Below, in pieces: positions 7,217 to 19,426 of a stretch of 36,248 bases of DNA (positions are counted from its first letter, which is position 1; every line of letters starts with the position of its first letter). Source of the stretch: Nocardiopsis lucentensis DSM 44048 (GTDB lineage: Bacteria; Actinomycetota; Actinomycetes; Streptosporangiales; Streptosporangiaceae). The notes under the pieces were generated by a model, which was not told where the DNA came from, did no database searches, and saw only the letters and a list, made by a program, of their open reading frames with translations. A program made the translations under genes and the position numbers. Location: assembly GCF_000341125.1 (NCBI RefSeq), contig NZ_ANBC01000138.1:1-36248 (forward strand), written 5' to 3'.

Positions 7217-7404
7217 TACCTCAGCACAAGTGAGCCAGAGCACGGATCTGATCGAGGTCGCCCCGGCCTTCGGCTGCGGCGCTGATCCTGGTGGTGATCG
7301 GCCTGAGTAGTGCACAGGTCCACCTCGCAGCTCACGCACCGCAACGCGTAGATCATCTCATCGGCGAAGCGCCGGACTCCTTGTCTTTTGACCTGGCCGC
7401 CGGC
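7217..7404. other. Intergenic stretch between MFS gene and Tn3 remnant
   Basis: No complete gene. The minus strand can be read as a short basic tail ending at 7221 (GRGDLDQIRALAHLC), which might be a scrap of another mobile-element protein, but nothing supports a name. No terminator hairpin with a U-run was seen after the MFS gene. Confidence 0.3.
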
Positions 7405-8150
7405 TCAGACGGCCAGGTCCAAGACGGTGAAGTCGATCTCGTCCAGGGCGGGGTCGAACGCCTCCGGTTCGACCCCCAGCACGTCGGTGGCGTAGGCACC
7501 GAACCGGGAGATGTGGACGCGGATGTAGGGGGACAGGGCGGCGATCTCCTCGGCGGTGACGGTCCACCCCTGCCTGACCAGGTCGCGCACCACCTCGGCG
7601 ATGTCCAGGGCGTTGTGGAAGATGACCAGGTTGACCAGCAACGTGTTGAGCTTGATGAGCTTCTCCTGCTCGTCGGGGTCGTTGTCGGCCAGCACCCCGT
7701 TGTTGCCGAACCGCAGCCACGCCGAGAAGCCGTTGTAGGACTCGGCCTTGTTGGTGGCCGCGGTGATCCGCGCCCGCAACTGGGGGGTCGTTCAAAAAGC
7801 GCAGCAGCGCCACAGTGCGCACCGACCGGCCGACCTCGCGGAACACCTTGTAGATGCGGTTCTTGCGCGAGTTGGAGCGCAGACGGCGCATCAGCGTGGC
7901 CGAGGACAGCCGCCCCTGGCTGATGGAGATGGCGACCTGCATCAGGTCGCGCCAGTGCCGCTCGATCAGCTTCCAGTCGATGACGTTGCGGCCCCGCTCC
8001 CCGTACAGCTCGTCGGTGCTGGGGTAGAGCATCTTGTCCGAGGCTCGGAAGAAGGTGAGGTCGGCGAAGTTGCGGATCCGGGGCATCAGGTCGAACCCGA
8101 ACAGGGTGGCCAGGGTGAACACCGGCGCCGACTGGCCTTCAGGGGGTATC
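7405..8150 (-). pseudogene. Tn3-family transposase, C-terminal remnant with frameshift
   Basis: About 245 residues from the C-terminal third of a TnpA transposase. Recognisable blocks are GQSAPVFTLATLFGFDLMPR, DLTFFRASDKMLYP, ERHWRDLMQVAISISQGRLS, then LTATNKAE-like RITAATNKAESYNGFSAWLRF and ending VLDLAV. The first roughly 700 residues are absent; upstream of GQSAPVF the frame turns into unrelated basic sequence near 8150. A frameshift splits the piece in a run of six G (7782-7787, six C on the coding strand): with five, the frame would read continuously as FLNDPQLRARI. The product cannot transpose. No terminal repeat could be assigned with confidence. Confidence 0.85.
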
Positions 8151-8340
8151 GAACGCCGCGCATGGTAGCGCTGACGCTTCAGAGCTCGCCTGGCACTTCG
8201 CCGAATCGCAACCAGTAGCAAGCGCAGACCTCTACGCCTTGGTAAGAGCGTGGCCGTTGACCAGCCCATTGTCGTTTTCCGGCGTACTTGGTTCACTCCC
8301 CAAGTCAGGTCGTGAACAGCGGCGAACGGAGTTGAATCAA
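8151..8340. other. Unassigned stretch upstream of the Tn3 remnant
   Basis: About 190 bp of lower-GC DNA between the Tn3 remnant and the first long direct repeat. A plus-strand frame reads VAVDQPIVVFRRTWFTPQVR and stops around 8314; it looks like the tail of a protein but has no start or recognised family. Confidence 0.25.
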
Positions 8341-8614
8341 CCACGCCACCCAGCGCGGCATCTCTCCTCGGGAGCCCGCCGGGAAGTCACCATGCCGCGA
8401 CGCCGTCGGGCGTTTCGTGCGGAGCGCCCGACGGCACCTGAGAGGCCACGCTCCAGCTCGCGATCTGGAGCAAATCTGGAGCGATGGAACCGCTCCAGGC
8501 CCTCTCAACCCACGTCAGACCACGCGAGAATCCCGAGGTTCAGCGCTCTGAACTGCGCATACGCGATTGACGTGCTGGTCGACGGAGACCCTCAGTAGGC
8601 CTGAGGAAGACCGG
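8341..8614. repeat. Long direct repeat, copy 1 (structured, ~274 bp)
   Basis: This segment recurs at 10418-10689 in the same orientation with roughly 90% identity. Conserved substructures are: a perfect 11-bp hairpin GCCGTCGGGCG (8402-8412) with CGCCCGACGGC (8425-8435) around a 12-base loop; tandem ATCTGGAGC units spaced 11 bp; and CTGGAGCG-N7-CGCTCCAG. Outer GAGAGG and CCTCTC segments could close a branched fold. Copy 1 also has GTTCAG-CGCT-CTGAAC, which is degraded in copy 2. A related double ATCTGGAGC motif occurs again at 8733-8752. Confidence 0.8.
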
Positions 8615-14407: not shown

Positions 14408-16996
14408 TCACATGTCGGGGGCGTGGGGGATGTCGCCCCACCAGTCGCGCGGTCCACCCCGGGCCAGCCTGCGCAGGAAGGCCAGGACACCCGCGACGCC
14501 GCTGGCCCAGCCGCCACCCGGTTCGCGGGTGTGGTCGAGGAAGACCGGGGCGTCGGGGGTGCCGTCCGAGCGCACCAGGATCAGCCCCGCCACGCCCAGG
14601 GCGGCGTCGCGGTGGGCGGTGTCCCCGGTGTGTGTCGCGGTGTCCAGGAGGAACTCGCCGACACCTGCCAGGCCGCAGCACTGACCGGTGACGGCGACCC
14701 GGGGCGCGTGCGCGCGGCAGCGGCGCGCGGCGCTCACCGCGAGTTCGGTGAGATGGGGCTGGCCGGTGTGGGAGCCGCCGTGGAGCAGGACTGTGCCGAT
14801 GCCGGCCAGGCCCTGGCACGACGCCAGGGTCATGGGGCGGGCCGTGGCGTGGTCGGCCTGTTCCAGCAGCGGCGGCAGGAGGTGGGCGAGGACCTCCAGG
14901 CCGGCGGTGGCCTCGGCCCGGGCGGCGGGGTCGCCGACGGCCGCGTCCAGGCACAGCAGGGCGTGGGTCACGCCCGCCAGGCCGTGGGCCAGGCCCAGGT
15001 GCGAGGTGGTGGCGTCGTGGTCGCCCGGGTCGGGCGGGCAGGCGCGGACGGTGGCGGCGGATCCGATGTCGACCAGGAGCCGCGCGCCGCGCCGGGCCAG
15101 GTCGAGGCGGGTCTGGTCTCCGGTCAGGCGCCAGAGGTGGAGCTGGGCCAGGGTGATCCCCGCGAGGCCGGAGGTGTGGTCGGTGGAGGAGACGGTCTCG
15201 GGGACGGTTCGGGCCAGGGGGCGGACCGCGTCGGTGAGGGTGGGGTCGTCGAGTTCGCGGGCGGCCATGGCCAGGAACACGGCCGTGCCGCAGGAGCCGA
15301 GTTGCAGCCCGGGTGGTGCGGGGCGCAGGGCCAGGAAGCCCGAGGTCCAGTGAGCGAGGGCGTGGGCCAGGGAGCGTGAGCGGGGGTCGTGGTGGCGTAG
15401 GAGTTCCATGCCGATCCCGGCCGCCCCCTGGTACTGGTTGGTGGGGCTTGGTGCGCCCGCGGGGGAGCGGTCGCGGCCGGTGAGCAGGGCGCGGGCGGCC
15501 TCGTGGGTCTGGTCCAGTGCCGTGGTGACGAGCGCGTCCACTCCGGCGGGTGTGACGGTGTAGCGGGGGTCGGCGTTCGGAGGTTGGGGGGCGTGACCCG
15601 AGCGGAGCAGCTCCATGGCGTGGACGCGCCGTGCGGGGTCGGGTGACATCAGGTCGGGGATCACTCCGGCCACGGCGGGGGTTCGGTCGCCCAGGGCGGC
15701 GAGGATGGTGCGGGCCCGGCCGTCGTCGGGTACGGCCCGGGTCGCGCGGGAGGGCGGGTCGACGCCGGTGACGGCGTAGAGCAGGGTGGCGCCCAGGGAG
15801 TAGAGGTCGTCCTCGAGCCGGGCGGGTGCGCCGTGTTCCTGTTCCGGAGGCGAGTAGCCGGGGGTCCAGCCGCGGGGCGGGTGGGGGTCGGGGGCGTCGA
15901 GGGTGTGGCTGATCTCGAAGTCGACCAGGCAGGGGTGGCCCTGGTCGGTGATGACGACGTTCTTGGGGGCCAGGTCGCGGATGAGGACGCCGCGGGCGTG
16001 CACGGCGTCGACCAGGCGGGTGAGGCGGGCGGCGAGGCGGCCCGGGTCCCGGTCGGTGGTGGTGTGGGTGCCGTGGGTGGCCACGTCGGTGCGCAGGTCC
16101 CGGGGGCCGAGGTCGGTGGTGGCGAGGAACTCGTCGGCGCCGTGGCGGAAGTGGTCCACGACGCTGGGGATGCCGTCGATGCCCTCCAGGCGGCGCAGGA
16201 CGGCGGCTTCGGCGCGGAGTCGGTGGCGGGCGTCGCGGGTTCCTGTGGGGTCCTCGTCGGTGTGGGCGCGGCGTTCCTTGACCACGACCGCCTGCCCGGT
16301 GGTGGTGTCGGTGGCGCGGTAGACGCCGCCCGCGGCGGTGTGGGCGATGGCGCCGGGGACCAGGAAGCGGCCGCCGAGCAGGACGGGGGAGGGCGCCGCC
16401 GTCTCGGGGGCGGGCAGGCGTCCGGTGAAGGGGTCGGGGATCCAGGTCGGCGCGTGGTAACGGCCGTCGGCTCCGCCGGGCCGTGCGCGCCCCTGGTCGT
16501 CGTGGACGACCAGGTGGAGATCGCCGTTGTCGTCGGTGGCGTGGGTGGCCTCGAAGGGGGCGTAGCGGTAGTAGACGGGCGCGTCGGGGCGGATCCTGCG
16601 GTCGCTGTGGACGCGTGGTCCCTCCAGGCCGGCGAGTTCGGCGGCCAGTTTCTCGGCAAGGTCGGTGAAGTGTTCGCGTGGGGGGTAGACGGTGACGGCC
16701 TTGCCCACGGCGCCGGGGCGGGAGCGGTGGGAGTTGAGTTCGCGCAGGATTTCGGTGGTGCGGGCGAACTTGAACCGGCATGGGGTCCGCAGCAGGAGGG
16801 GTAGAGCGCGGCCGAGGGTTTCGACCAGGGTCGTGGGTCGGGCGGAGATGTGGATCTTCCAGCCCTGGGGCGGCAGTTCGAGGTTGGGGAGGGTGACGTC
16901 GGTCCAGGTCGTGTGGTCGGTGATGACGCGTCCAGCCCGGCGCAGGCGTTCCTCCAGCGCTGGTGTGCGGGTGCGGGTGCTGTCGTGCTCGCGCAC
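14408..16996 (-). CDS. Lanthipeptide synthetase, lyase-kinase-cyclase type (class IV LanL-like)
   Basis: An 862-residue three-domain enzyme that should dehydrate Ser/Thr of the adjacent precursor and close thioether rings. Residues about 20-195 are the phospho-Ser/Thr lyase domain: GWKIHISA, RFKFA, GKAVTVYP and VYYRYAPF. Residues about 205-470 are a Ser/Thr kinase: VVVKERR (Lys240), IRDLAPKN (Asp341, Asn346), LVDFE (Asp359) and TPGYSPPEQ. Residues about 480-862 are a LanC-like cyclase with repeated GLAG-type motifs. At the zinc positions it has GLAHG (His671), SCQG (Cys727) and QCCG (Cys773, Cys774). Class III LanKC cyclases lack these ligands, whereas class IV LanL keeps Cys/Cys/His, so this enzyme groups with LanL but with Cys replacing the His. 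GTG 16996 follows GGGAGA. It lies 157 bp downstream of the precursor gene, across a hairpin. Residue numbers are counted by hand. Confidence 0.9.
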   Translation of the reverse strand: MREHDSTRTRTPALEERLRRAGRVITDHTTWTDVTLPNLELPPQGWKIHISARPTTLVETLGRALPLLLRTPCRFKFARTTEILRELNSHRSRPGAVGKAVTVYPPREHFTDLAEKLAAELAGLEGPRVHSDRRIRPDAPVYYRYAPFEATHATDDNGDLHLVVHDDQGRARPGGADGRYHAPTWIPDPFTGRLPAPETAAPSPVLLGGRFLVPGAIAHTAAGGVYRATDTTTGQAVVVKERRAHTDEDPTGTRDARHRLRAEAAVLRRLEGIDGIPSVVDHFRHGADEFLATTDLGPRDLRTDVATHGTHTTTDRDPGRLAARLTRLVDAVHARGVLIRDLAPKNVVITDQGHPCLVDFEISHTLDAPDPHPPRGWTPGYSPPEQEHGAPARLEDDLYSLGATLLYAVTGVDPPSRATRAVPDDGRARTILAALGDRTPAVAGVIPDLMSPDPARRVHAMELLRSGHAPQPPNADPRYTVTPAGVDALVTTALDQTHEAARALLTGRDRSPAGAPSPTNQYQGAAGIGMELLRHHDPRSRSLAHALAHWTSGFLALRPAPPGLQLGSCGTAVFLAMAARELDDPTLTDAVRPLARTVPETVSSTDHTSGLAGITLAQLHLWRLTGDQTRLDLARRGARLLVDIGSAATVRACPPDPGDHDATTSHLGLAHGLAGVTHALLCLDAAVGDPAARAEATAGLEVLAHLLPPLLEQADHATARPMTLASCQGLAGIGTVLLHGGSHTGQPHLTELAVSAARRCRAHAPRVAVTGQCCGLAGVGEFLLDTATHTGDTAHRDAALGVAGLILVRSDGTPDAPVFLDHTREPGGGWASGVAGVLAFLRRLARGGPRDWWGDIPHAPDM

Positions 16997-17069
16997 CGTT
17001 GGTCTCCCTCGTCGGTGGTGTCGGGGGGTGGGGTGGCCGTCGTGTTCGGGGCGGCCACCCCGTGTGGGG

Positions 17070-17093
17070 CCGCCCCGGCGGGGGCCGGGGCGG
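17070..17093. terminator. Strong hairpin between precursor and synthetase genes
   Basis: CCGCCCCGGC (17070-17079), loop GGGG, GCCGGGGCGG (17084-17093): a perfect 10-bp all-GC stem, next to a second nested GGGGCGG/CCGCCCC pairing at 17048-17076. It lies in the leader between the precursor stop (17154) and the synthetase start (16996). No U-run follows, so it is more likely an attenuator or mRNA-stabilising structure that favours precursor over synthetase expression (inference). Confidence 0.5.
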
Positions 17094-17153
17094 CGTGGTC
17101 GTGGCCGGGTGCGGGGTCGGCTCACGTCCGTGCTGTCGAGACGCATGCGTGCG

Positions 17154-17315
17154 TCAGAAGGTGGCTCCGTCGCAGCGGATGGTCCAGCCGCTGATGCAGG
17201 GGCGGATGCAGTCGAGGTTGAGCTGGTCGGACAGGAGTTCGGTTTCGGCTCCGAGGGAGACGAGCGGGGTGGTGTCGAGCGTTCCGGCGTCGCGGGGCAG
17301 GTCCTGCATGGCCAT
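17154..17315 (-). CDS. Lanthipeptide precursor peptide
   Basis: A 53-residue peptide just upstream of the synthetase on the same strand. Residues 1-35 form an acidic, Leu-rich leader (MAMQDLPRDAG at the start, ETELLSDQLNLD at the end). Residues 36-53, CIRPCISGWTIRCDGATF, form the probable core, with Cys36, Cys40 and Cys48 and dehydratable Ser42, Thr45 and Thr52. Thr45-Cys48 is a normal Thr-x-x-Cys ring pair; Ser29 in the leader-proximal part could pair with Cys36. There is no GG cleavage site, and no canonical class III ILELQ box is seen. ATG 17315 follows GGGAGGA; the internal ATG at 17309 is possible. Its size, position and Cys/Ser/Thr-rich end make the call; the leader boundary is inferred. 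Confidence 0.85.
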   Translation of the reverse strand: MAMQDLPRDAGTLDTTPLVSLGAETELLSDQLNLDCIRPCISGWTIRCDGATF

Positions 17316-17463: not shown

Positions 17464-18522
17464 ATGAGGAGTGAATTGAAACCCGAAACTCCCCCCATGC
17501 CCTCAATGGGAGTGACGGCCGCAATGCGTCAGGCCGCCACGCCCGAATCCCCACCGCGGGTGCCCGCCATCCGGGCCGAGGGACTCGTCAAGACCTTCCC
17601 TGGTGTGGAGGCCGTGTGCGGACTCGACCTCCTCGTGCACCCAGGGGAGATCTTCGGTCTCCTGGGCCCCAACGGCGCCGGGAAGTCGACCACGATCGCG
17701 ATGCTGTGCGCGCTGACACGGCCCACCGCCGGTGGACTGTGGGTGGCCGGGCACGACGTGCGCACCCGGCCGGCCGCCGTCCGCCGCTCCATCGGGGTGG
17801 TCTTCCAGAAGACCACCCTGGACGACAAGCTCACCGTTGAGGAGAACCTGCGGATCCACGCCGTCCTGTACGGGGTGCCGCGACGCCGCGCGCGGGAGCG
17901 GGTCACCGCCATGCTCGCGCTCACCGACCTGGCCGACCGGCGCCGCAGCCTGGTGGGCACCCTCTCGGGCGGGATGAAGCGCCGTCTGGAGATCGCGCGC
18001 GGGTTGCTGCACGAGCCCCGGGTGCTGTTCCTGGACGAGCCGACCGTGGGCCTGGATCCGCACAGCCGCGCGGAGGTGTGGCACCACGTGCACCGCATGC
18101 GCCGCGAGTCGGACGCCACGGTGCTGCTGACCACCCACCACCTGGCCGAGGCCGACCACTGCGACCGGCTGGCCATCCTCGACCACGGCCGCGTCGTGGC
18201 CTTGGGCTCCCCCGAGGAGCTGCGGGCCAGGATCGGCCGCGACAGCGTGCGGGTGCGCACCGAGGCCCCCGAACGCGACGCCCTCACCCTGGCCGACGGT
18301 CTCGGTGTGCGCCCGACGGTGGTCGACGGGCAGGTCGTGGTGCAGGCCGAGGACGGGGCGGCCATGCTGCCCAGGATCGTGACCGCCCTGGAGGGGGCGG
18401 TCACCTCCGTGACGGTGTCCCGGCCAAGCCTGGACGACGTGTTCCTCCACTACACGGGGCGCAGCGTCGCCGACCAGGGCACCGCTGCCACGGAGCCGCT
18501 CGTCACCGGGGATGACTCATGA
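17464..18522 (+). CDS. ABC transporter ATP-binding protein (lanthipeptide export candidate)
   Basis: About 352 residues from ATG 17464; Met codons at 17497, 17506 and 17524 and a TTG at 17476 (preceded by GAGGAG) are alternatives, as no start has a perfect ribosome site. Motifs: Walker A GPNGAGKSTT, Q-loop VFQKTTLDDKLT, signature LSGGMKRR, Walker B VLFLDEPTVGLD and H-loop LLTTHHLAEADHC. The C-terminal ~90 residues form the regulatory extension seen in DrrA-type drug-export ATPases. Together with the ABC-2 permease downstream it should form a peripheral-plus-membrane exporter. Divergent placement next to the precursor points to product export or self-protection. Its stop overlaps a following ATG (ATGA). 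Confidence 0.9.
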   Translation: MRSELKPETPPMPSMGVTAAMRQAATPESPPRVPAIRAEGLVKTFPGVEAVCGLDLLVHPGEIFGLLGPNGAGKSTTIAMLCALTRPTAGGLWVAGHDVRTRPAAVRRSIGVVFQKTTLDDKLTVEENLRIHAVLYGVPRRRARERVTAMLALTDLADRRRSLVGTLSGGMKRRLEIARGLLHEPRVLFLDEPTVGLDPHSRAEVWHHVHRMRRESDATVLLTTHHLAEADHCDRLAILDHGRVVALGSPEELRARIGRDSVRVRTEAPERDALTLADGLGVRPTVVDGQVVVQAEDGAAMLPRIVTALEGAVTSVTVSRPSLDDVFLHYTGRSVADQGTAATEPLVTGDDS

Positions 18523-18584
18523 AATCGATGACCGTGACCGAACCGCCAGCCGGTGCGGCGACGGCTGGGGGGAGGACGCGATGA
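18519..18584 (+). other. 21-codon frame bridging the two transporter genes
   Basis: ATG 18519 overlaps the ATPase stop (ATGA) and its own TGA (18582-18584) overlaps the permease ATG (ATGATC). It reads MKSMTVTEPPAGAATAGGRT plus one residue. It could be a translational-coupling relay, or the original permease N-terminus detached by a frameshift. There is no evidence that the peptide itself has a function. Confidence 0.3.
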
Positions 18585-19426
18585 TCAACGCGTCGCCGCG
18601 GGAGGTCGGCACACGTCTGGCCGGGGAGGCGCGCGCCGTGGGCGCGGTGTGGCAGCGGGAGATGATCACTTTCGGCCGTGAGCGCCTGCGGTTGGTGATC
18701 AGTCTGCTCCAGCCGCTGTTGATCCTGGTCTCGCTCGGCATCGGCCTGGGAGCGGTGGTCCCGGACGGGGAGACGGGAATCGGGTATGTCACCTTCCTCT
18801 TCCCGGGGGTGCTGGTGATGGCGATCCAGGCCCCCGCGTTCGCGGCGGGCGCCTCGATCCTGTGGGACCGCGAGTTCGGGTTCTTGCGGGAGATGCTGGT
18901 GGCCCCGGTGCGCCGCGAGTCGCTGCTGCTGGGCAAGGTGCTGGCGGGCACGGCCACCGCGACGTGCCACGGGGCGGTGCTGCTGGTGTTCGCGGGCGCC
19001 GCCGAGGTGCCCTACGATCCCGTCTTGTTGGCGTCCTTCGTGGCCGTGCTGGCGCTGGCCGCGTTCGCGATGACGTCGCTCGGGGCCCTGCTCGCGGTGT
19101 CCCTTCCCAACCCGCAGACCTTCCAGGCGGTCACCGGGTTGCTGTTGGGGCCGCTGGTGTTCCTGTCGGGCGCGTTCTTCCCGCTCAGTGGTCTGCCGTC
19201 GTGGCTGGACGCGCTCACGGCGCTGAACCCGCTGACCTACGCGGTGGACGCGGCGCGTCACGTCCTGGCCGCGCGTCTGCTCGGTGAGGCTCCGGCGGGG
19301 CTGTTCGAGGGGTTGGAGGTATGGGGGTCGCGGGTGCCGGTTTCGGTGGAGCTGGCGGTCCTGACGGGTTTCGCGGTGCTGTGCCTGGTCGTGGCGGCGC
19401 GCCGGTTCTCGCGGCCAGATCAGTGA
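18581..19426 (+). CDS. ABC-2 type transporter permease (lanthipeptide export candidate)
   Basis: A 281-residue membrane protein with about six hydrophobic spans (LLQPLLILVSLGIGLGAVV, FLFPGVLVMAIQAPAFAAGA and others). It has the ABC-2/DrrB signature around REFGFLREMLVAPVRR and the late motif LNPLTYAVDAARH. ATG 18581 is chosen for its strong GGGGGGAGG ribosome site; an ATG at 18512 in the same frame would add 23 residues and overlap the ATPase end. It forms a half-transporter pair with the preceding ATPase. A GC-rich terminator hairpin follows 12 bp after the stop, closing the operon. Confidence 0.9.
   Translation: MINASPREVGTRLAGEARAVGAVWQREMITFGRERLRLVISLLQPLLILVSLGIGLGAVVPDGETGIGYVTFLFPGVLVMAIQAPAFAAGASILWDREFGFLREMLVAPVRRESLLLGKVLAGTATATCHGAVLLVFAGAAEVPYDPVLLASFVAVLALAAFAMTSLGALLAVSLPNPQTFQAVTGLLLGPLVFLSGAFFPLSGLPSWLDALTALNPLTYAVDAARHVLAARLLGEAPAGLFEGLEVWGSRVPVSVELAVLTGFAVLCLVVAARRFSRPDQ

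What the first reader, a model, noticed from the sequence alone, without database searches (positions are those of the whole stretch)
14408..17315. Lanthipeptide synthetase with class III/IV architecture and an apparent Cys/Cys/Cys zinc site
Seen: lyase, kinase and LanC-like domains in order; at the cyclase metal positions the protein has SCQG and QCCG where zinc LanC enzymes have C-x-G and CHG, with GLAHG also kept. Known: class III LanKC lacks the zinc ligands, class IV LanL has Cys/Cys/His, and a three-Cys (CCG) site is known from promiscuous class II enzymes such as ProcM. Inference: this is a class IV-like enzyme with a CCG site, which could give faster or less selective cyclisation, or unusual ring topology.
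Basis: partly seen in the sequence, partly recalled or inferred. Interest (0 to 1): 0.85.

Follow-up and report, generated by a model that had tools for sequence, protein, structure and literature searches.

The report
Curvocidin-type class IV lanthipeptide synthetase
This is an intact gene cluster for a small ring-bearing peptide, made by an enzyme of an already known subgroup with three cysteines at its metal site; the less expected part is that its peptide resembles cinnamycin, an antibiotic made by a different class of enzyme.

Summary
The protein (window 14408-16996, minus strand, 862 aa from a GTG) is a complete class IV lanthipeptide synthetase, LanL, with cyclase metal residues Cys/Cys/Cys plus the catalytic His. 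The three-Cys site is not new: the nearest solved structure, CuvL (curvocidin synthetase), has the same CQG...QCCG, and the lyase/kinase + CCC combination is tabulated in print (PMC11251773). In my non-random set 49 of 102 enzymes with metal ligands are CCC; 46 form one clade with the window and CuvL, 3 arose separately. ProcM-like promiscuity is not supported: one precursor match in the genome, beside the enzyme. That precursor, lanA (17154-17315), has core CIRPCISGWTIRCDGATF. It and seven relatives follow the cinnamycin pattern one residue shorter and without the lysinoalanine partners. The six weak matches to the core end of the cinnamycin model in 298 genomes all lie directly upstream of LanL genes; lysinoalanine and hydroxylase genes are absent. 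The window alone has Pro where cinnamycins have ring residue S/T4. Best view: a new member of the curvocidin clade making a cinnamycin-like tricyclic peptide.

The parts
14408..16996 (-). lanL: class IV lanthipeptide synthetase, 862 aa from GTG (longer ATG reading to 17146, 912 aa)
   Evidence: NF038150 817 bits over cut-off 650; domains; GAGGGAGA before the GTG; model pLDDT 88.6, CuvL Z 56.3
   Evidence: metal column
   Evidence: metal columns
14984..14986 (-). codon of catalytic His721, GLAHG
   Evidence: conserved column
17154..17315 (-). lanA: precursor peptide, 53 aa, leader with LPRDAG
   Evidence: translation, GGGAGGA before the ATG; homologues upstream of related lanL genes; only match in own genome
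17157..17210 (-). core CIRPCISGWTIRCDGATF: 3 Cys, 3 Ser/Thr, Pro at position 4
   Evidence: cinnamycin model match E 1.7e-5, 25.4 bits, below cut-off 35
17530..18522 (+). DrrA-type ABC transporter ATPase, divergent from lanA-lanL
   Evidence: drrA model 315 bits; 56% identical to the ATPase of a class II cinnamycin locus, but generic DrrA ATPases score nearly as high
18512..19426 (+). DrrB-type ABC transporter permease
   Evidence: ranking in 298 genomes and tree

Best explanation
The locus is an intact class IV lanthipeptide cluster of the curvocidin (CuvL) clade: precursor lanA, synthetase lanL and a divergent DrrAB-type transporter. Shown by sequence: the LanL kinase, lyase and cyclase keep their catalytic residues, and the cyclase has Cys/Cys/Cys at its metal positions. 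Inferred: LanL holds the leader, phosphorylates core Ser42, Thr45 and Thr52 of lanA, eliminates phosphate to Dha/Dhb, and a zinc ion held by three Cys activates Cys36, Cys40 and Cys48 to close three thioether rings; the transporter exports the product and/or protects the producer; a protease not identified here removes the leader. Inferred with less certainty: the product has a cinnamycin-like crossed, head-to-tail fold (Cys36-Thr52, Cys40-Thr45) without lysinoalanine or hydroxy-Asp. Because position 4 is Pro here, the third ring would be Ser42-Cys48 instead of the residue 4 to Cys48 ring expected in its relatives.
For: Class IV equivalog and domains. Model matches CuvL 8car at Z 56.3, rmsd 2.9 A over 812 residues, 44% identity; class III ThurKC comes at 32.5. 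Catalytic residues. CCC columns and clade. Precursor leader motif PRDAG shared with the precursors beside CuvL; a PRDAG-like leader with Cys lies upstream in 40 of 49 CCC loci, two of them (L077, L118) doubtful. Three Cys and three Ser/Thr in the core. In 298 genomes six matches cover only the C-terminal, core end of the cinnamycin model, and all six are directly upstream of a LanL. Core HMM from 18 distinct class II cores: L088 23.5 and L016 15.9 bits with 0 of 5000 Cys-fixed shuffles as high, L106 19.5 with 1; L009 11.9 with 10; window 10.0 with 21. DurN and the CinX-position protein match in 5 of 5 genomes with a class II cinnamycin locus and in 0 of 6 genomes with only the class IV type.
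Against: No product, expression or metal data. I could not read the curvocidin paper, so its ring topology and metal ligands are not checked. The window's own core is the weakest cinnamycin match of its subgroup (L009, L010, L088) and lacks the position-4 hydroxyl residue. Scores of the curvocidin-type cores (5.5-8.1) lie near that of an unrelated-looking core of the same clade (L012, 5.0), and 41 of 5000 shuffles of one of them score as high. The transporter tree does not make the LanL and cinnamycin transporters exclusive sisters, and by ATPase score generic DrrA rows overlap cinnamycin ones.
Confidence: 0.75

Rival explanations
1. A ProcM-like promiscuous synthetase whose CCC site gives fast, unselective cyclisation of many substrates.
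For: CCC site; the review PMC12328550 links CCG to low selectivity in ProcM-like class II enzymes (passage).
Against: One precursor match in the whole genome, next to the enzyme; class IV dehydratase domains rather than LanM; a dedicated precursor with a PRDAG-like leader lies upstream in 40 of 49 CCC loci.
Confidence: 0.06
2. The same class IV LanL, but the core's likeness to cinnamycin is chance or convergence on Cys and Thr spacing only, and the rings are simple, non-overlapping ones (for example Cys40-Thr45 with another short ring and one free Cys).
For: Window core alone is only moderately above Cys-fixed shuffles (21 of 5000 as high); Pro replaces the ring residue at position 4; CinX-position and DurN genes are missing.
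Against: Relatives' cores (L016, L088) beat all 5000 shuffles, and all six core-end matches in 298 genomes sit beside LanL.
Confidence: 0.3
3. A decaying or inactive cluster.
For: Same-genus loci show decay: L189 keeps lanA and transporter but its LanL is in pieces, with residues about 665-824 unmatched; L188, L190 and L191 show a transporter with no LanL or LanM match (E 1e-15) within about 5 kb.
Against: Window LanL is open with its catalytic residues kept; 86-88% identical orthologue in L009.
Confidence: 0.05

Closest known systems
CuvL / curvocidin (PDB 8car, 8cav; Sigurdsson et al. 2023; source Thermomonospora curvata recalled)
   Same: Same class IV domain order, same CQG...QCCG site, an 11-row subclade in the tree (SH-aLRT 97), PRDAG leader, three-Cys core with G.T..CD, DrrAB-type transporter beside it. 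L082 carries the 8car sequence in the three stretches tested.
   Different: 46% identity over the protein; core CIRPCISGWTIRCDGATF against CTVCHWGRTVLCDDFSTQA; one precursor here, two beside CuvL.
Cinnamycin/duramycin (class II; gene order N-A-M-X-T-H from PMC6974636, passage)
   Same: Core Cys1, Cys5, Gly8, Thr11, Cys14-Asp-Gly and Thr18 retained; DrrAB-type transporter.
   Different: Leader unrelated by eye; kinase/lyase LanL instead of LanM; CCC instead of CHG; no DurN, no CinX-position protein; core one residue shorter, Ser6 and Lys19 missing, and S/T4 missing in the window alone of eight class IV loci.
VenL, SgbL and other CHG class IV synthetases
   Same: Lyase-kinase-LanC architecture and lyase residues at VenL's spacing.
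   Different: Zn residues of LanL described as Cys/Cys/His (passages); CHG class IV rows lie in other parts of my tree (VenL and SgbL themselves were not rows).
ProcM-type class II synthetases
   Same: CCC metal residues (passages).
   Different: Different dehydratase; no dispersed precursors found here.

Membership tests
Class IV LanL | lyase, kinase and LanC domains in one chain | tested here: met
   Pfam; CuvL-like model
Class IV LanL | NCBIfam class IV equivalog cut-off | tested here: met
   817.4 bits vs 650; class III 367.3 vs 575
Class IV LanL | metal-ligand residues present in the cyclase | tested here: met
   Cys/Cys/Cys at the metal columns; metal content itself not tested
Class III LanKC | cyclase without metal ligands | tested here: not met
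   three Cys present; not among the zinc-free rows in the tree
Curvocidin (CuvL) clade | synthetase groups with CuvL | tested here: met
   11-row group, SH-aLRT 97, with L082, which carries the 8car sequence
Curvocidin (CuvL) clade | adjacent precursor with related leader and three-Cys core | tested here: met
Curvocidin (CuvL) clade | tricyclic product (recalled from the abstract) | not testable with these tools
   no product data
Cinnamycin family | core CxxxCSxGPFTxxCDGxTK (PMC12837462, passage) | tested here: not met
   one residue shorter, Ser6 and Lys19 missing; NF033431 25.4 bits against cut-off 35
Cinnamycin family | class II LanM synthetase | tested here: not met
   LanM model 69.8 bits against cut-off 304, LanC part only
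Cinnamycin family | DurN/CinN and CinX | tested here: not met
   no match in G000; 5 of 5 class II control genomes match, at their class II loci; CinX identified by position only
ProcM-type promiscuous synthetase | many precursors scattered in the genome | tested here: not met
   one match at E up to 10; only relatives of this leader or core can be found so

The most novel reading that the evidence does not exclude
The three-Cys class IV clade is a second, independent enzymatic route to the cinnamycin scaffold: a cinnamycin-like core (and possibly its exporter) is paired with a class IV leader and LanL and goes without lysinoalanine and Asp hydroxylation. Within it the window's peptide has lost the position-4 ring residue and would close a different third ring (Ser42-Cys48), while some relatives (L181, L182, L106) carry tandem cinnamycin-like cores in one precursor.
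Probability: 0.45. Interest if true: 0.6.

Novelty: new member of a known kind. Interest (0 to 1): 0.4.

Why it matters
The metal-site claim becomes ordinary: class IV CCC enzymes are common, and one has a crystal structure. What remains testable is whether two unrelated dehydratase classes, with different metal residues (CCC and CHG), build the same crossed-ring cinnamycin scaffold. The window peptide, with Pro where cinnamycins have the ring residue S/T4, is a natural probe of which enzyme or substrate feature sets ring topology. A class IV cinnamycin-like peptide lacking lysinoalanine and hydroxy-Asp would also test what phosphatidylethanolamine binding needs.

Tried and rejected
ProcM-like promiscuity: looked for further precursors in the own genome, found one. 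Class III membership: rejected on score, ligands and tree. Filing the peptide as a cinnamycin: rejected, several defining features fail. An exporter shared by cinnamycin and LanL loci only: not borne out. In the permease tree (57 rows: 11 LanL, 16 LanM, 30 'other') the window group, the curvocidin group, the cinnamycin group and 8 of the 30 'other' rows are cut off from the remaining 22 'other' rows by a starred branch (100/100), but the cinnamycin and LanL groups are not shown to be sisters, and the rows came from the top of one ranking. Bit scores also overlap: to the window permease, cinnamycin rows give 215-252 and 'other' rows 214-239 outside the same-genus orphans and L206; to the window ATPase, cinnamycin rows 328-378 and 'other' rows up to 353. 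So 56% ATPase identity is no strong sign by itself. RidA and the WYL regulator downstream of lanL were considered as cluster parts; of the nine other LanL loci compared only L009 shares them, so they are left out.

papers not held (SgbL mutants, curvocidin, class III/IV review), so they are cited by title or recall only. One search timed out and was redone; ended in script errors (69 after printing the motifs, codons and cores that I use) and the scoring was redone. One search gave wrong columns by an offset error; one search is the corrected count. Before the 112-row counts, loci covering under 700 query residues, without a hit, or duplicating another row were dropped. I over-sampled low-scoring LanLs when fetching, so 49 of 102 is not a population rate, and some rows lie below the class IV cut-off. 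A further weak cinnamycin-model match (G440) covers leader positions only and its neighbourhood was not read. Cores of L181 and L182 were not scored. NisC, ProcM, VenL and LabKC themselves were not aligned; their residue numbers come from paper passages. Zinc geometry in the model was not measured. A PE-methyltransferase (CinL-type immunity) was not looked for.
Full report
What is there. The reported protein is real and complete: ORF 14408-17146 (-), 912 aa from its first ATG; a better start is the GTG at 16996 behind GAGGGAGA, 862 aa. Pfam finds lyase (RamC_N), kinase and LANC_like domains in that order. NCBIfam calls it class IV LanL at 817 bits (cut-off 650), against 367 for class III (cut-off 575). 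An AlphaFold2 model from 39 sequences (mean pLDDT 88.6, pTM 0.87) matches CuvL, the curvocidin synthetase, at Z 56.3 (8car) and 55.5 (8cav); the class III ThurKC comes at 32.5. The lyase residues K97, H99, R129, Y154 repeat VenL's K51, H53, R83, Y108 at the same spacing (VenL numbers from a passage of PMC2843593). Kinase residues K290, E313, D391, N396, D409 are invariant in 39 sequences.

The metal site. Of the 112 rows 53 are Cys/Cys/His, 49 Cys/Cys/Cys and 10 lack the ligands. My fetching favoured low-scoring enzymes, so this is not a rate. In the evenly drawn class sample (394 genomes) 24 matches pass the class IV cut-off; of the 21 given a locus 5 are CCC, the window's included, 15 CCH and 1 has no ligands. 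A LanC-domain tree with the ligand columns taken out needs two origins of CCC: a 46-row clade (SH-aLRT 100) holding the window and CuvL, and three rows (L074, L077, L081) nested among CCH enzymes. CuvL itself reads CQG...QCCG. In print, PMC11251773 (section 10 read whole, passages of other sections seen) lists the lyase-dehydratase + CCC combination with 8 predicted peptides and speaks of three independent CCC subclades. So the site is real but not novel.

What follows from the site. The review PMC12328550 (passages) links the CCG motif of ProcM-like class II enzymes with low selectivity. Nothing here supports that for this enzyme: only one precursor match exists in the genome at E up to 10, the one beside lanL, and only one LANC_like match is found at E up to 0.001. 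A second, class III-like synthetase lies elsewhere in the genome (C176, 389 bits to the class IV model, below cut-off; no metal motif found).

The precursor. Its leader carries LPRDAG; a PRDAG-like leader followed by Cys lies within 900 bases upstream in 40 of 49 CCC loci, L077 and L118 being doubtful, and both precursors beside CuvL have it. The core is CIRPCISGWTIRCDGATF. The published cinnamycin motif is CxxxCSxGPFTxxCDGxTK (PMC12837462, passage). The window core keeps Cys1, Cys5, Gly8, the ring Thr, Cys-Asp-Gly and the last ring Thr; it has one residue fewer, and lacks Ser6 and Lys19 (the lysinoalanine partners).

How sure is the likeness. Searching 298 genomes of the family with the cinnamycin precursor model gave 28 genomes over the cut-off. 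Six matches cover only the C-terminal, core end of the model, some with the end of the leader (G000, G197, G643, G644, G646, G588; G588 is one of the 28, but only with its neighbours in the frame). All six are directly upstream of a class IV LanL. One more weak match (G440) covers leader positions only and was not followed. A core HMM from 18 distinct class II cores gives 23.5 bits to L088 and 15.9 to L016, which none of 5000 Cys-fixed shuffles reach, and 19.5 to L106 (1 shuffle as high), 11.9 to L009 (10), 10.0 to the window (21); curvocidin-type cores get 5.5-8.1 (41 shuffles reach the one tested) and one unrelated-looking core of the clade, L012, 5.0 (49). So the likeness is firm for the group, moderate for the window alone and weak for curvocidin itself. 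Of eight loci with this core type (window, L009, L010, L184, L016, L181, L182, L106) seven have Thr at position 4; the window has Pro by one base, CCC for ACC in its closest relative L009. In class II cinnamycins that position is the ring partner of Cys14 (general knowledge; PMC12837462 lists T4 among the dehydrated residues).

Missing tailoring. In class II loci the gene order N-A-M-X-T-H (PMC6974636, passage) identifies DurN/CinN (also Pfam DurN) and, by position only, CinX. Both match in 5 of 5 genomes with a class II cinnamycin locus, at those loci (three of the five, G549, G512 and G498, hold LanL-model matches elsewhere too), and in 0 of 6 genomes chosen for a class IV locus of this type, the window's included. 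This agrees with the loss of Ser6 and Lys19. Class II enzymes at loci matched by the cinnamycin model carry CHG in 16 of 16 loci read, 12 of them with the core motif, so the CCC site is not what makes this core pattern.

Transporter. Divergent from lanA is a DrrAB-type ABC transporter whose ATPase is 56% identical to one from a class II cinnamycin locus, while the ATPase in the LanL locus L016 is 38% identical. In a ranking over 298 genomes the permease's best matches are first same-genus loci (LanL neighbours and orphan transporters), then permeases beside curvocidin-type LanLs, then mostly permeases of cinnamycin loci with generic ones interleaved. Against a special link, generic rows score nearly as high, for the ATPase especially. 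A tree of 57 top-ranked permeases cuts these groups, with 8 'other' rows, from the 22 generic DrrB rows by a starred branch, but does not make the LanL and cinnamycin groups sisters.

Working model. Shown: intact domains, catalytic residues, adjacent precursor, clade. Inferred: leader-guided phosphorylation of Ser42, Thr45 and Thr52, elimination, and zinc-activated Cys closing rings onto Dha/Dhb. Less sure: a Cys36-Thr52 head-to-tail ring and Cys40-Thr45, with Ser42-Cys48 as the third ring because Pro39 cannot be dehydrated. Against phosphatidylethanolamine binding as in cinnamycin: no lysinoalanine and no hydroxylase; the Asp-Gly is kept.

Novelty. The enzyme is a new member of the curvocidin clade. 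I could not read the curvocidin paper (not held; title confirmed; its abstract, which I recall as describing a new clade of tricyclic class IV lanthipeptides from Thermomonospora curvata, comes from no call). Searches for cinnamycin or duramycin with class IV or LanL (25 of 76 papers listed, 12 of 29, 4 of 4) listed reviews and mining papers; in the titles, abstract starts and passages seen none states the cinnamycin likeness, but I read none of them in full, so priority is open.

Noticed in passing
L181:7959-8198 (-), L182:7956-8195 (-), L106:2385-2846 (+): Class IV precursors with tandem cinnamycin-like cores in one peptide (for example ACVSTCVSGFTIKCDGNTF followed by QTCVTGATLRCDG), next to CCC LanLs.
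   Followed up: partly
L189:7122-9153: Same-genus locus with a broken LanL (residues about 665-824 unmatched) but an open precursor and transporter; L188, L190, L191 show the transporter without a LanL or LanM match within about 5 kb, which hints at a self-protection role.
   Followed up: partly
L074, L077, L081: A second, separate origin of the CCC site inside the CHG class IV enzymes.
   Followed up: partly
L115, L116: Two CCC enzymes have Arg in place of the catalytic His (GLARG/GPARG).
   Followed up: no
L043: An enzyme just over the class IV cut-off (652 bits) lacks all three metal ligands (DFR), so the class IV model alone does not prove a metal site.
   Followed up: no
L119, L120: LanL-model matches (G411 486 and G421 474 bits, below cut-off) without metal ligands on a very long branch among the CHG rows of the tree.
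   Followed up: no
window 7358-8344: Tn3-family transposase DDE domain about 6 kb from the cluster.
   Followed up: no
L016:6193-7425: SARP regulator upstream of the A. hibisca precursor, 35% identical to a SARP beside a class II cinnamycin locus.
   Followed up: no
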